A stretch of DNA of 23,619 bases from a virus. The DNA lies in the IMG/VR virus record IMGVR_UViG_3300035698_024328, positions 1 to 23,619 of that record. One strand, written 5' to 3'. Positions 16,699-23,208 of this stretch are shown piece by piece (position 1 is the first letter of the stretch; the number at the start of each line of letters is the position of its first letter). The position numbers and the translations under genes were made by a program. Below the pieces are notes generated by a model. It was not told where the DNA came from and made no database searches. It was given only the letters and a program-made list of their open reading frames with translations.

Positions 16699-16829
16699 GG
16701 CGCGGTGGCGGAATAGGTAGACGCTACGGATTTAGAAGAAAGACAATATACTATTGATTAAGGCAACCGTAATCCTTAATAAAAAGTCCTAATTATTGTT
16801 ATGTCAGGTGCAAATCCTGACCCGCGCCA
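16699..16829 (+). tRNA. tRNA-Leu-like gene (UAG) with insertion in the anticodon loop
   Basis: A 7-bp acceptor GGCGCGG/CCGCGCC closes the structure. T8 and a Leu-type D arm (GGCGGAATAGGTAGACGC) follow. ACGGA-TTTAGAA gives T33 and a UAG anticodon with A37 A38. The stem partner ACCGT/CCGTA comes only about 30 nt later (16767-16771). The insert contains a CAATA-TAC-TATTG hairpin. The variable region is long (about 31 nt). The T arm is GTCAGG-TGCAAAT-CCTGAC, one pair longer than usual, with G in place of T55. CCA is not encoded. Total 131 nt. It may be an intron-bearing, repurposed or decayed tRNA. An ATG at 16801 lies inside it and is not a gene start. Confidence 0.5.
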
Positions 16830-16848
16830 AAGGATTAACTCAAAAACA

Positions 16849-17538
16849 ATGAAAAAGATAAGATATCCAAACGACTTCATCAATAAGATAATCTGTGGGG
16901 ATTGCTTAAAAGTGATGGAGAGTATGCCGAATCAATCGGTGAAGTTAATCCTTACTGACCCTCCCTATGGGATTTCCTCATCATCTCATGTGAAAGAATG
17001 GGAGAAAGACAGCAACTCCCTTAAGGAGATGATAGGTTGGATGATAGAATGCCTAAGAGTGGGAGAGGTTGTTATATGGACTCTCCCAGCAACTCTCCTC
17101 CCCCTTCTGTTCAGCAATAATGAAATCACTCGTAAATACCATAGGTTAATGGTATGGAGCAAACCTCCGGGGTCGCAATTCACTGGGGCTATGCATAACA
17201 ACCTATGGTACTCGGTCGAGTTTATAGCGGTATTCTCTAATGTCAAGATGCCATCGGCAGATAAGAAAAAAAGATATGGATATAGCGTTTTCACACACAA
17301 GACCATTCTGCAGAAAGTTTTTGGGCATCCTACTACCAAACCTATCGGGCTTTTCAGGGAATTAGTATATTATTACACGAGCGAGGGGGATACAGTATTA
17401 GACCCTTTCTTAGGGAGCGGGACTACGGCAGTAGCATGTAAGGAATTAAAAAGAAAATTCATTGGAATAGAGAAGAACCCCCATTATTGTGATATCGCAA
17501 GGGGGAGAGTAGGGAGTATCCCCTATCCGATGTTCTAA
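16849..17538 (+). CDS. DNA methyltransferase, beta-class (N6_N4_Mtase)
   Basis: 229 residues from the ATG at 16849; an ATG at 16801 would start inside the tRNA-like gene. The catalytic motif IV is TDPPYGI (DPPY 37-40), near the N-terminus. The AdoMet motif I, DPFLGSGTTAVA (185-196), and FIGIEKNPHYCDIA are near the C-terminus. This order (IV before I) defines the beta class, and DPPY favours N6-adenine, though N4-cytosine cannot be excluded. No nuclease partner is adjacent, so it is an orphan phage enzyme, probably protecting DNA from restriction. A target-recognition stretch should lie at about 85-150. Confidence 0.88.
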   Translation: MKKIRYPNDFINKIICGDCLKVMESMPNQSVKLILTDPPYGISSSSHVKEWEKDSNSLKEMIGWMIECLRVGEVVIWTLPATLLPLLFSNNEITRKYHRLMVWSKPPGSQFTGAMHNNLWYSVEFIAVFSNVKMPSADKKKRYGYSVFTHKTILQKVFGHPTTKPIGLFRELVYYYTSEGDTVLDPFLGSGTTAVACKELKRKFIGIEKNPHYCDIARGRVGSIPYPMF

Positions 17539-17587: not shown

Positions 17588-17842
17588 ATGATTAAAATAG
17601 ACAGCCACGTTCTCCATATTACGGGGAAGGTAGGAATCACTCCCAATGAGTATGAGAGCCTAACGAAGGTTCATCATAGAGATGGGGAGGTAGCGATTAC
17701 TGTAAGAGGCAACATGAGATGGGTCGGCAAGGAGGAAACTAAAAATGATGGGACTTACATTGTCTTTGGTAGCTTCAAACCATTAATTGTAGAAGAGATA
17801 AAAGTATATGGAATTGGAAAAGATACTAATCCAAAGGAGTAA
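17588..17842 (+). CDS. Hypothetical beta-rich protein, first gene of the dut-purZ cluster
   Basis: 84 residues, family not recognised. Mostly beta strands (HVLHITGKVGI, EVAITVRGNMRWV, TYIVFGSFKPLIVEEIKVYG). There are no cysteines or membrane segments. It overlaps the dUTPase start by 35 nt, so it is probably cotranslated. It has an AAAGGTCG leader and no Shine-Dalgarno. A link to nucleotide metabolism rests on position only. Confidence 0.6.
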   Translation: MIKIDSHVLHITGKVGITPNEYESLTKVHHRDGEVAITVRGNMRWVGKEETKNDGTYIVFGSFKPLIVEEIKVYGIGKDTNPKE

Positions 17843-18248
17843 CAACGCAAAGGTCTTCCCTCTGCCAAAGCCCAAGAAGGAAGGAGATGTGGGGTTTGAT
17901 CTTTATGCGTCAGAGGACACTTACATTCCCCCCCGGAATCAGATCCCCATTGATGTACCAACAGGGTGTAAGGTTAAAATACCTGAAGGATATTGGATGG
18001 CGATCGTCCCCCGTAGTGGAGCTTTAAGCAAAGGCATCTTGATCCCATACAGTGTGATCGACAACGGATTTACGGGGGAATTATTGGCCAGGTGTTTCAA
18101 CATGACAGATGTAGAAGTGACGATCCAGGCAGGAGTACGCCTTGCCCAATTCGTTATTTTTCCTATATTTACCCCTGGAATTCAAGAAGTAAACGAGCTT
18201 CCAAAAACAGAACGTGGAGAATCGGGATTTGGAAGTACAGACAAATGA
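17808..18248 (+). CDS. dut: dUTP diphosphatase, trimeric type
   Basis: 146 residues, the usual length. All five motifs are visible: I VGFDLYAS (about 29-36), II PRSG (about 68-71), III VIDNGFTGEL (about 83-92), IV GVRLAQFVIFP (about 109-119) and V RGESGFGSTDK at the C-terminus. It hydrolyses dUTP to dUMP and pyrophosphate, keeping uracil out of DNA and feeding dTMP synthesis. The ATG at 17808 lies 35 nt inside the upstream gene. The TGA overlaps the next ATG (ATGA, 18245-18248). It belongs to a tight cluster with the PurA/PurZ-family gene. Confidence 0.93.
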   Translation: MELEKILIQRSNNAKVFPLPKPKKEGDVGFDLYASEDTYIPPRNQIPIDVPTGCKVKIPEGYWMAIVPRSGALSKGILIPYSVIDNGFTGELLARCFNMTDVEVTIQAGVRLAQFVIFPIFTPGIQEVNELPKTERGESGFGSTDK

Positions 18249-18445
18249 AAGATAAGAATGGAAGAAAATTGCATAGAATTTTCTGCAAAAGATGCGGTAA
18301 ACCCCGATGGGTAAGCTGTCAGAATTGGAAGCAGGTTAAATACTGCAAGTCATGCCAATATGATGTTAGACGTGAGTATAATTCAGCATACGTTAAGGTT
18401 TGGAGAGCAAAGAAGTTAAAATTAAAAAAGAAAAATGAAAAATAA
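18245..18445 (+). CDS. Small basic zinc-ribbon protein
   Basis: 66 residues. The start at 18245 overlaps the dut stop; a longer frame reaching back to 18092 only shadows dut. CKRC (about 13-16) and CKSC (about 33-36), with an intervening Trp and Cys (WVSCQNWKQVKYC), suggest a zinc ribbon. The C-terminal third is a Lys/Arg helix (VWRAKKLKLKKKNEK), fitting nucleic-acid binding. It overlaps the synthetase gene by 11 nt. No target known. Confidence 0.65.
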   Translation: MKDKNGRKLHRIFCKRCGKPRWVSCQNWKQVKYCKSCQYDVRREYNSAYVKVWRAKKLKLKKKNEK

Positions 18446-19511
18446 ACGTGGGTCTATTGATATTGTTTGTGGTGGCCAATATGGAGATGAAGGGAAGGGG
18501 TCAATCGCCATATGGTTAGCCACTCACAATAGATATAACTTTTCTGTCCGAGTAGGAGGGTTTAATGCAGAACATAGGTTTTTCTATGAAGGGAACGAAT
18601 ACACATCAAGAATTCTCCCTTGTGCAGGAGTATCTCCTCATATGGACCTCTATCTTGGGGCAGGACATCTTTTTTCCGTCAAATCCTTAAAGGAAGAGGT
18701 AAAGTCACTGGGCATCAATCCTGCTCGTATCTTTATTGACAAGAATGCTGGGATTGTCCTTCCTATGCATCAAAAGCAATCTCAAAATGCTAACCGTGGC
18801 AAGAGAGGTGGTACTACGGGGCAAGGAGCAGGGAAGGCGGCCACACACAAAGTGTTAAGAGACGGCACATTTGTCACAGCAAGTATGAGTCCTGAGCTAC
18901 AGGGGCAACCCTTCTACTTTCTACCTCAAAAAATCTGCAGTGATCTAAACATGGGCAAGTATGGACTGATCGAGGGATCTCAGGGAGCATTACTCTCCCT
19001 TAACCATGGATACTACCCCTTTTGTTGTGCCAAGGATGTAACCCCTGCAGGGGTATTGGCCGAAGTCGGGGCTACACTATCTGACGTGAGAGACATTTAT
19101 GCTATTTATAGAGCATACCCAATGAGAGTTCCTGGAAAGAGTGGTCCAACCGGTGGAGCAGAAATAGACTGGGAGGAGATGGAAGTGCGATTAGGTAGGG
19201 GTGTCTCCAAGGAAGGAAAAATGCAAACCCAATCTGATGGTAGTAAGAAAGGGACTGAGCGTATCTTTGAGTGGAGTTGGGGTGACTTTAGGAAATCCAT
19301 CGCTTTATGTGGACCGACCAAGATGGTTTTCACCTTTGCCGATTGGCATCACCCTGACAACCTCGGAGTAAATAAATGGGAAGATTTGCATAGTTCAACG
19401 ATGAAGCACATCTCAGATATGGAGAGAGTGGCGGCAGAGATTCTAGGGAGGCAAGTTATGGTTACCTTGATTAAGACAGGCCCTAAAGAAGAGGAGTACA
19501 TTGCAAGGTAA
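18435..19511 (+). CDS. purZ: Adenylosuccinate synthetase family protein, PurZ-like
   Basis: 358 residues; ordinary bacterial PurA has about 430. The GTP loop GQYGDEGKG (14-22) keeps Asp18 and Lys21, and NAEH carries His47 (PurA His41). GTTGQG (126-131) replaces the PurA GIGP-type loop. EGSQGALLSLN (180-190), CCAKDVTPAG (197-206) and AYPMRVPGKSGP (227-238) resemble the viral PurZ pattern rather than PurA, which has a TTAGG-type loop there. PurZ joins Asp to dGMP in the route to 2-aminoadenine (Z) DNA; PurA does so with IMP. The aspartate usually replaced in PurZ is retained, so PurA or PurZ0-like activity is open. It is cotranslated with dut. Confidence 0.8.
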   Translation: MKNKRGSIDIVCGGQYGDEGKGSIAIWLATHNRYNFSVRVGGFNAEHRFFYEGNEYTSRILPCAGVSPHMDLYLGAGHLFSVKSLKEEVKSLGINPARIFIDKNAGIVLPMHQKQSQNANRGKRGGTTGQGAGKAATHKVLRDGTFVTASMSPELQGQPFYFLPQKICSDLNMGKYGLIEGSQGALLSLNHGYYPFCCAKDVTPAGVLAEVGATLSDVRDIYAIYRAYPMRVPGKSGPTGGAEIDWEEMEVRLGRGVSKEGKMQTQSDGSKKGTERIFEWSWGDFRKSIALCGPTKMVFTFADWHHPDNLGVNKWEDLHSSTMKHISDMERVAAEILGRQVMVTLIKTGPKEEEYIAR

Positions 19512-22325: not shown

Positions 22326-22853
22326 ATGACTAAAAACTTTTTACAACTATTAATACAGAGAATAACTCTACGGATTAAAATTCTTCAGTTGAGGTTACAA
22401 ATAATGAAAGGACAGAAAGTTACTTATCCTAAGTATAAGATTAAGGGAGTGATTGTTCATCATTCGGCTGGGGATTGGACATTTGACCAAGTAAATAATC
22501 ATCATAAAGACATATGGGGAGCTAAAAGTTCATTGGGATATTATGTTGGGTACCATAAAGTTATCGACCTCGATGGAACCCTACATATTGCTAGGAGAGA
22601 TGGAGAAGAGGGTGCACATGCGGTAGGAGGTATCCCTCATTACTACAATCGTTACTATGTGGGTATTTGCTTACAGGGGAATTTTGAAGAGAGAGAGCCG
22701 ACGGGAGAACAATTAAGAGTTCTTGAAAAGGAATTAGATAAATATAGAAGGGTCGGGTTGGAAATCTTGATGCATAGACAGGTGTCTGCTACTTTGTGTC
22801 CCGGCAAACATTTAATAGAATGGTTACAAGCATACAAAAAATATGGGAAATAA
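22326..22853 (+). CDS. N-acetylmuramoyl-L-alanine amidase (Amidase_2), endolysin
   Basis: 175 residues. The T7-lysozyme/PGRP fold: VIVHHSAG (His45), GYHKVIDLDGTLHIARRDGE (about 75-94), GAHAVGG, YYVGICLQGNF, and finally MHRQVSATLCPGKH with His150 and Cys158. The three zinc ligands and their spacing (His-x7-Cys at the end) match T7 lysozyme. It cuts the peptide stem from peptidoglycan glycan. Residues 1-27 are basic and hydrophobic (LLIQRITLRIKILQLRLQIM), possibly amphipathic; not a classic signal, so a holin is expected. It overlaps the next gene by 11 nt. Confidence 0.88.
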   Translation: MTKNFLQLLIQRITLRIKILQLRLQIMKGQKVTYPKYKIKGVIVHHSAGDWTFDQVNNHHKDIWGAKSSLGYYVGYHKVIDLDGTLHIARRDGEEGAHAVGGIPHYYNRYYVGICLQGNFEEREPTGEQLRVLEKELDKYRRVGLEILMHRQVSATLCPGKHLIEWLQAYKKYGK

Positions 22854-23208
22854 AAAATTAGTATACATTGCTTATCCCTACCGCGCTAAAACACGCAGAG
22901 GAATAAGAAAGAATATAAAAAAAGCCTGCCAATATGGCAAGCTTGCTTACGCCCAAGGGTATATACCTTTGATCCCTCACATCAATTCAAGCCCACTGTT
23001 TGGTTTGATGGGAGGAGATGATTCTAAAATAACTGAATATGACCTTTATCTCCTCTCAGCATGTAAATGTCTTTGGCTGTGTGGTAGTACAATCTCGAAG
23101 GGTATGGAGACAGAGAGAGACTTTGCGACGAGGGCAGGAATCCCAATAAAATATGTCGGGATGCCTATTCCTCATACCAAGGTTCTCCCTTCCTCCACTC
23201 TAAGATAG
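22843..23208 (+). CDS. DUF4406 / nucleoside 2-deoxyribosyltransferase-like protein
   Basis: 121 residues. YIAYPYRAKTRRGIRKNIKK (about 8-27), then GYIPLIPHINSSPL (about 39-52), then EYDLYLLSACKCLWLCG and SKGMETERDFATRAGIP (about 87-103). The pattern (Y-I-x-x-P-Y-R, P-x-P-H, D-x-x-x-L-x-x-C-D-like, S-x-G-M-x-x-E) is that of DUF4406, related to 2-deoxyribosyltransferases that exchange bases on deoxynucleosides. A role in base or nucleotide exchange would suit a phage with a PurZ-like enzyme. The catalytic Glu is likely that in GMETE. Its end overlaps the opposite-strand holin-like gene by 44 nt. Confidence 0.75.
   Translation: MGNKKLVYIAYPYRAKTRRGIRKNIKKACQYGKLAYAQGYIPLIPHINSSPLFGLMGGDDSKITEYDLYLLSACKCLWLCGSTISKGMETERDFATRAGIPIKYVGMPIPHTKVLPSSTLR

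What the first reader, a model, noticed from the sequence alone, without database searches (positions are those of the whole stretch)
18435..19511. PurZ-like synthetase retaining the PurA aspartate: possible Z-DNA route
The short length and the loops GTTGQG, LSLN, DVTPAG and RVPGKSGP resemble viral PurZ, which makes the 2-aminoadenine precursor. Yet Asp18 of GDEGKG, replaced in PurZ of phage PhiVC8, is present. This could be an intermediate (PurZ0-like) enzyme, a compact PurA, or a different base-modifying activity. It is cotranslated with dUTPase. No DatZ, MazZ or DpoZ is in the window, and an adenine-type methyltransferase nearby argues against full replacement of A by Z.
Basis: partly seen in the sequence, partly recalled or inferred. 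Interest (0 to 1): 0.75.

Follow-up and report, generated by a model that had tools for sequence, protein, structure and literature searches.

The report
Asp-keeping PurZ-like enzyme with DutZ partner
This phage gene belongs to an undescribed branch of the enzymes that let some viruses swap the DNA letter A for another base; it kept one ancestral catalytic residue, lost the arginines that normally hold aspartate, and sits beside the kind of nucleotide-cleaning enzyme typical of such viruses, so it may make a known or an unknown modified DNA base.

Summary
In detail: 18435-19511 encodes a 358-aa PurA/PurZ-family protein that keeps the catalytic Asp (D18). It passes neither the curated PurZ cut-off (149 of 300 bits) nor the PurA ones.

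It belongs to a clade of 17 records. All share Asp13, a unique AEHR motif (E. coli G40-H41-T42 changed to E-H-R) and nearly all a PurZ-type RVPGxSGP loop. All 16 that cover the Asp-binding loop lack R303 and R305; all 165 other covered sequences keep R305. The tree groups the clade with PurZ/PurZ0, not PurA (100/99). Whether Asp was retained or regained is open (p 0.25 for an early branch).

The 'dUTPase' two genes upstream is the real link. It groups with PurZ0-linked DutZ (90/97) and has the Trp that, in 80 sampled viral dUTPases, occurs only beside PurZ0-type genes. One relative has the NDT-dUTPase fusion known from PurZ0 phages. DatZ, MazG and DpoZ are absent; relatives' PolA lacks the shared DpoZ signature in 12 of 13.

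Best reading: a DutZ-coupled, PurZ-type synthetase acting on dGMP, probably with a changed amine donor. Ordinary Z synthesis is the main rival. Substrate and product are untested.

The parts
18435..19511 (+). PurZ-related synthetase of the Asp13/E40/R42 clade ('D-clade'), 358 aa
18486..18488 (+). codon of D18 (E. coli PurA D13; Ser in all known phage PurZ and PurZ0)
   Evidence: PMC12884076
18567..18578 (+). AEHR motif (residues 45-48): E. coli G40-H41-T42 changed to E-H-R, clade signature
19125..19148 (+). RVPGKSGP loop (residues 231-238), PurZ/PurZ0-type inserted V273 loop next to the ribose 2' position
   Evidence: PMC8342488
19221..19262 (+). segment replacing the Asp-binding loop (residues 263-276, MQTQSDGSKKGTER): no R303 or R305 equivalent, Glu at 305
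   Evidence: PMC11276676 and PMC8342488 define the loop
17808..18248 (+). dUTPase-family protein of the DutZ kind, 146 aa
   Evidence: Pfam dUTPase E 2.2e-28; groups with PurZ0-linked dUTPases 90/97
17994..17996 (+). codon of W63, the DutZ-marking Trp in IPxGYW
18245..18445 (+). 66-aa Cys-rich ORF overlapping dUTPase (4 bases) and the PurZ-like gene (11 bases)
16801..17538 (+). N6_N4 DNA methyltransferase (DPPY motif) upstream in the same gene run; context only
   Evidence: E 5.1e-32
22843..23208 (+). DUF7768, a nucleoside deoxyribosyltransferase-like protein without the DmtZ residues D12 and N77; probably not a DmtZ

Best explanation
The gene encodes a PurZ-type synthetase from an undescribed clade that works on a purine deoxynucleotide, most likely dGMP. 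The neighbouring DutZ-type dUTPase supplies dGMP by hydrolysing dGTP and also removes dATP. The synthetase moves a phosphate from an NTP (GTP more likely, since D333 is kept) onto O6 of dGMP, and an amine then displaces it. Because the arginines that hold L-aspartate are gone and Glu stands in place of R305, the amine donor is probably not L-aspartate in the usual pose. The product would be a 6-substituted 2-aminopurine deoxynucleotide (or 2-aminoadenine made without the succinyl intermediate), which is phosphorylated and built into phage DNA. Shown: sequence, clade, lost loop, DutZ-type partner. Inferred: substrate, donor, product, incorporation.
For: Tree: the clade is monophyletic (100/99) and groups with PurZ, PurZ0 and kinase-fused Ser homologues (100/99), with the discussed residues left out. 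The PurZ-type V273 loop (RVPGxSGP, compare PurZ0 RVAGNSGP) and the Cys of YPYCT are PurZ-like; PMC8342488 ties that loop to exclusion of the ribose 2'-OH. Of 186 aligned homologues, all 101 covered Asp13/G40 sequences have R303 and R305, all 64 Ser13 ones have R305, and none of the 16 covered clade members has either (R305 is Glu in 16 of 16, R42 in 17 of 17). Published structures call this the Asp-binding loop (PMC11276676; PMC8342488). Partner: the window dUTPase and those of L009, L011 and L014 group with PurZ0-linked DutZ (90/97); all four carry the Trp found in 3 of 80 sampled viral dUTPases, each beside a PurZ0-type gene; Ghobes and Wayne DutZ hydrolyse dATP and dGTP (PMC12884076). L011 has an NDT-dUTPase fusion that aligns over 98-100% with Wayne-type DmtZ-DutZ proteins of Arthrobacter phages and with the Hiyaa protein; those of Wayne and Hiyaa lie beside PurZ0. 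dN/dS is 0.08-0.10 in three pairs (dS near saturation).
Against: No activity data. R306 is kept and the clade's new E46 and R48 could rebuild an aspartate site. The loop's model confidence is lower (pLDDT about 72 in the block 261-270) and the replaced segment differs between subclades, so residue matching there is approximate. The AU test does not formally reject the clade joining mainstream PurA (p 0.079) although it rejects joining Thermococcus PurA (p 0.03). A dUTPase passes the cut-off in only 4 of 17 records, although many records are fragments.
Confidence: 0.45

Rival explanations
1. Ordinary Z route by a third PurZ lineage: the enzyme uses dGMP, L-aspartate and NTP to make succino-2-aminodeoxyadenylate, which host PurB turns into dZMP. 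Aspartate is held by other residues (R48, R306), and Asp18 is simply the ancestral state.
For: Same placement and DutZ-type partner as the best explanation. A tree in which all Ser-bearing sequences form a clade apart from this one is not rejected (p 0.25), which fits retention of Asp. A family-A polymerase is present in 13 of 17 records, upstream of the synthetase and within about 1 kb in ten, as in PurZ phages.
Against: R303 and R305 lost in every covered member while R305 is kept in all Ser and Asp homologues. The only residue change shared by both DpoZ groups (Tyr to Phe, PMC8599892) is absent in 12 of 13 neighbouring polymerases. No DatZ or MazG. Adenine-type methyltransferases nearby.
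Confidence: 0.3
2. A compact phage PurA that makes adenylosuccinate from IMP (or dIMP) to raise adenine nucleotide supply.
For: Keeps Asp13, H41, D333 and R143 equivalents. The best PDB match by sequence and fold is P. horikoshii PurA. AU test against mainstream PurA p 0.079.
Against: Fails PurA cut-offs (134 of 395.55 and 200 of 368 bits). The sampled phage PurA keep TTGRxR and the short RVG loop. Their neighbouring dUTPases have Glu or Met where the window has Trp. Bootstrap support places the clade with PurZ.
Confidence: 0.15
3. A catalytically different or regulatory descendant that binds nucleotides (for example a dGMP/GTP sensor or an enzyme of host takeover) and makes no DNA precursor.
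For: Unique active-site changes; synthesis partners not all present in the window.
Against: Strong conservation of the nucleotide-binding residues, low dN/dS, and recurrent position next to a replication polymerase or DutZ in several phage types.
Confidence: 0.1

Closest known systems
PurZ0 of Gordonia/Arthrobacter/Streptomyces phages (Ghobes, Wayne, Hiyaa; PDB 7VF6)
   Same: Fold (Z 39.4), RVxGNSGP loop, D333, DutZ partner; NDT-dUTPase fusion in relative L011
   Different: PurZ0 has Ser at position 13, NAGHT and TTVTxKVRR; this clade has Asp, NAEHR and no R303 or R305
PurZ of phiVC8, S-2L and SH-Ab 15497 (PDB 6FKO, 7ODX)
   Same: Fold, SG insertion in the V273 loop, weak sister placement (82/84), family-A polymerase nearby in relatives
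   Different: Ser at position 13, ATP-type donor site (D333 changed to N/Q), DatZ and MazZ partners, TTVTKxxRR loop
PurA of Thermococcales (P. horikoshii, PDB 5K7X)
   Same: Short chain, Asp13, highest structural Z (44.0) and top PDB E-value
   Different: GRRRR aspartate loop, RVGAGPF, NAGHS; outside the PurZ assembly (100/99; p 0.03)
DutZ and DmtZ-DutZ (PMC12884076)
   Same: Window dUTPase shares the Trp and the clade (90/97); L011 shares the NDT-dUTPase fusion and the residues D12, P57, N77, E103
   Different: No DmtZ found in the window; window dUTPase is a separate gene; activity untested
Kinase-fused Ser-type PurZ homologues of bacteria and archaea (L015-L021, L027)
   Same: In the same assembly (100/99)
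   Different: Have Ser, NAGH and R305, an N-terminal kinase-like domain and cellular neighbours

Membership tests
PurZ/PurZ0 (2-amino-adenylosuccinate synthetase, NF038379) | NCBIfam model cut-off of 300 bits | tested here: not met
   Window 149, L003 164, L011 170; phiVC8 397 and Ghobes 346 pass
PurZ/PurZ0 (2-amino-adenylosuccinate synthetase, NF038379) | Catalytic Asp replaced by Ser (100% of phage members in PMC12884076) | tested here: not met
   D18 in the window, Asp in the whole clade
PurZ/PurZ0 (2-amino-adenylosuccinate synthetase, NF038379) | Inserted V273 loop with SG after R[VI] | tested here: met
   RVPGKSGP
PurZ/PurZ0 (2-amino-adenylosuccinate synthetase, NF038379) | Asp-binding loop T-x-T with R305 | tested here: not met
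   Absent in 16 of 16 covered clade members, R305 present in 64 of 64 Ser-type sequences
PurZ/PurZ0 (2-amino-adenylosuccinate synthetase, NF038379) | Phylogenetic place in the PurZ group | tested here: inconclusive
   Groups with PurZ, PurZ0 and kinase-fused Ser forms at 100/99, but whether inside or beside the Ser clade is unresolved (p 0.25)
PurZ/PurZ0 (2-amino-adenylosuccinate synthetase, NF038379) | dGMP + Asp + NTP to dSMP activity | not testable with these tools
   Needs enzyme assay
PurA (TIGR00184, NF003295) | Curated cut-offs | tested here: not met
   134 of 395.55 and 200 of 368 bits; Thermococcus L022 440 and 577
PurA (TIGR00184, NF003295) | Asp13 | tested here: met
   D18
PurA (TIGR00184, NF003295) | R303 and R305 of the Asp-binding loop | tested here: not met
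   101 of 101 covered PurA-type sequences have both, the clade has neither
PurA (TIGR00184, NF003295) | Placement inside cellular PurA | tested here: not met
   100/99 on the PurZ side; AU p 0.03 against Thermococcus PurA, 0.079 against mainstream PurA
DutZ (window dUTPase) | Groups with PurZ0-linked dUTPases | tested here: met
   90/97 in a tree of 46, one control row also inside
DutZ (window dUTPase) | Aromatic residue, mostly Trp, before motif II (mark found here, not published) | tested here: met
   W63; 7 of 7 PurZ0-linked sampled dUTPases aromatic versus 16 of 73 others, Fisher p 7.7e-5; Trp only beside PurZ0-type genes
DutZ (window dUTPase) | dATP and dGTP hydrolysis | not testable with these tools
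   Needs assay
DpoZ (polymerases of relatives) | Helix-O Tyr changed to Phe, shared by both DpoZ groups | tested here: not met
   Tyr in 12 of 13, Phe only in L010; Phe in 8 of 8 reference DpoZ

The most novel reading that the evidence does not exclude
A third branch of PurZ-type enzymes that couples an amine other than L-aspartate to the 6 position of dGMP, giving phage DNA an undescribed 6-substituted 2-aminopurine (or 2-aminoadenine made without PurB), with DutZ and DmtZ-like enzymes clearing the competing dATP.
Probability: 0.3. Interest if true: 0.9.

Novelty: new variant of a known kind. Interest (0 to 1): 0.7.

Why it matters
A published survey treats the Asp-to-Ser change as universal among phage Z-DNA synthetases (100% of 147 phage sequences, PMC12884076), so this clade would be filed as PurA and overlooked. 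If it works on dGMP it widens the set of base-replacing phages, may show the state before the Ser change, and offers a testable route to a new DNA base. The Trp mark and the NDT-dUTPase fusion give a simple sequence test for finding such phages.

Tried and rejected
DatZ (PF12917), MazG (PF03819) and lyase (PF00206, covering adenylosuccinate lyase) searches gave no match in any virus record of the clade (MazG only in the Eisenbacteria host genome). DUF5664 is in only two relatives, L004 and L005. The window's DUF7768 protein was considered as a DmtZ and rejected: it lacks D12 and N77. A DpoZ identity for the relatives' polymerases was tested and not met; the polymerase tree puts three of them (L009, L011, L014) beside DpoZ-1 (97/97) and the rest in their own clade. 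The GenBank phage collection gave no hit above 33% identity. A fifth scan of viral contigs for more members returned only already known members and other sequences without the clade's motifs, nearly all with the usual TTVT...RR loop. L004's NDT had no GenBank phage match. A paper search combining adenylosuccinate synthetase, bacteriophage and base modification found nothing. No model coordinates were available in the Python box, so active-site geometry could not be measured.

Full report
Observation. The window is a whole IMG/VR virus record of 23,619 bases. The ORF 18435-19511 encodes a 358-aa protein of the adenylosuccinate synthetase family. It lies behind a dUTPase gene (17808-18248) and a 66-aa ORF (18245-18445); the three overlap by 4 and 11 bases. 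The rest of the record codes for terminase, portal, capsid, ERF recombinase, a replication-initiation-like protein, NinG and a DNA methyltransferase. No family-A polymerase, DatZ, MazG or DUF5664 is in it.

A clade. Scans of viral contigs and of 84,980 prokaryote genomes gave 16 relatives at 34-50% identity: fifteen virus records (L003-L012, L072-L075, L078) and one contig in an Eisenbacteria assembly (L014). All keep Asp13 and share AEHR, in which E. coli G40 and T42 have become Glu and Arg; this occurs in none of the other homologues examined. A further scan added no new members. The GenBank phage collection has no close relative (best identity 33%).

Placement. In a 62-row tree and in a second 55-row tree with the discussed residues removed, the clade is monophyletic (100/99) and groups with PurZ, PurZ0 and a kinase-fused Ser-type family (100/99), away from bacterial, phage and Thermococcus PurA. 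Order inside that assembly is weak. A tree with all Ser-bearing sequences as one clade, this clade branching apart, is not rejected (p 0.25); joining Thermococcus PurA is rejected (p 0.03), joining mainstream PurA is not formally rejected (p 0.079). So Asp may be retained or regained. Curated models agree that it is neither: 149 of 300 bits for PurZ, 134 of 395.55 and 200 of 368 for PurA.

Active site. Kept: K16, N38 (one exception), H41, R143, Q224, V273, D333. PurZ-like: the SG-bearing loop after R-V (RVPGxSGP), which in PurZ presses on C2' of the sugar and disfavours ribonucleotides (PMC8342488), and the Cys in YP[YF]C. Unique: E40, R42 and the loss of the aspartate-binding loop. Of 105 Asp13/G40 sequences all 101 covered have R303 and R305; all 64 Ser13 sequences have R305; in the 16 covered clade members R305 is Glu and the T-x-T-x-[RK] stretch is gone. 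The loop is named as Asp-binding in H. pylori AdSS (residues 289-294, PMC11276676), and its tip is called crucial in S-2L PurZ, where R280 (equivalent to R305 in my alignment) lies near S23 (PMC8342488). That R303 and R305 hold aspartate in E. coli is from my own knowledge of the enzyme literature. The replacement differs between subclades: QTDSGxxER, QGD(ST)...EEER, GGSAG...GGxER.

Partners. Dut-like proteins of PurZ0 phages Ghobes and Wayne hydrolyse dATP and dGTP, and NDT-like DmtZ hydrolyses dAMP and transfers its sugar phosphate to Z (PMC12884076). The window dUTPase and those of L009, L011 and L014 group with PurZ0-linked dUTPases (90/97), apart from 24 of 25 controls. All four have Trp in IPxG[YF]W. 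In 80 viral dUTPases collected by an unrelated motif, Trp occurs three times, each beside a PurZ0-type gene; all seven PurZ0-linked ones are aromatic there versus 16 of 73 others (Fisher p 7.7e-5). dUTPases beside ordinary phage PurA have Glu or Met. L011 carries an NDT-dUTPase fusion with Y6, D12, P57, N77 and E103 of DmtZ; the GenBank phages with a full-length match that I inspected (Wayne, Hiyaa) have PurZ0 close by. L009 and L014 have separate NDT and dUTPase genes; L003, L004 and L006 have an NDT just downstream.

Polymerase. Thirteen of 17 records have a family-A polymerase with a proofreading domain, upstream on the same strand: less than 0.25 kb away in five (L007, L008, L012, L073, L078), about 0.6-1.1 kb in five (L003-L006, L010) and 2.4-5 kb in three (L009, L011, L014). 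The sampled phage PurA loci had none in their flanks. The only change shared by both known DpoZ groups, helix-O Tyr to Phe (PMC8599892), is absent in 12 of 13, so Z preference cannot be claimed. The window record has no polymerase and, as far as it goes, would depend on the host's.

Mechanism. I favour a PurZ-type reaction on dGMP fed by the DutZ-type neighbour, with a changed amine donor (0.45). The plain Z route is next (0.30). The shared core, a DutZ-coupled PurZ-type enzyme acting on a purine deoxynucleotide, has about 0.75. Steps shown: sequence, clade, loss of the loop, DutZ-type partner. Steps inferred: substrate, donor, product and incorporation into DNA.

Limits. Records are fragments; dUTPase passes the cut-off in 4 of 17 and NDT matches in 7 of 17. 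The aspartate-loop region is modelled with lower confidence. Methyltransferases of both the DPPY and SPPY kind occur in several relatives; E. coli enzymes methylate Z-DNA at least ten-fold less well (PMC8342488), so this neither proves nor excludes a modified adenine.

Noticed in passing
L015:8040-11725, also L016-L021 and L027: Ser-type PurZ homologues fused to an N-terminal dNMP-kinase-like domain in Dehalococcoidia, Pirellulaceae, Mesorhizobium, Sphingomonas and a Thermoplasmata MAG, often beside an ImmA/IrrE-type protease (PADLOC capP-like hit) and a DUF7002 protein; a candidate cellular, perhaps anti-phage, use of PurZ chemistry.
   Followed up: partly
L160-L239 and PurZ0 references, dUTPase position equal to window W63: Trp (or Phe/Tyr) before motif II of dUTPase tracks with a neighbouring PurZ0-type gene; looks like an unpublished sequence mark of DutZ.
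   Followed up: yes
L011:11624-12601: NDT-dUTPase fusion outside the PurZ0 phages, same domain order as Wayne DmtZ-DutZ.
   Followed up: yes
L151 (Streptomyces phage Hiyaa) 12551-19412: PurZ0 gene, NDT-dUTPase fusion and PurB-like lyase within 7 kb of an 83-kb phage.
   Followed up: partly
L065 (Bacillus phage vB_BpsS-140) 9956-11077: Gene annotated purA is a Ser-type PurZ relative branching below phiVC8-like PurZ (99/98), with adenylate kinase and dut downstream.
   Followed up: partly
L004:11734-15447: Downstream of the synthetase lie a ribonucleotide-reductase-like ORF, a DUF5664 dATP/dGTP diphosphohydrolase and a nucleotide-kinase-like gene.
   Followed up: no
L007:14710-17651; L014:16112-18128; L003:4632-5183: DNA methyltransferase genes near the synthetase, some in tandem (DPPY and SPPY types, MT-A70 in L003).
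   Followed up: no
L263:9458-10935: A PurZ-type gene with NAGHS and TTVTNRLRR next to a family-A polymerase and an NDT similar to those of the Asp-keeping clade; may be a bridge between the groups.
   Followed up: no
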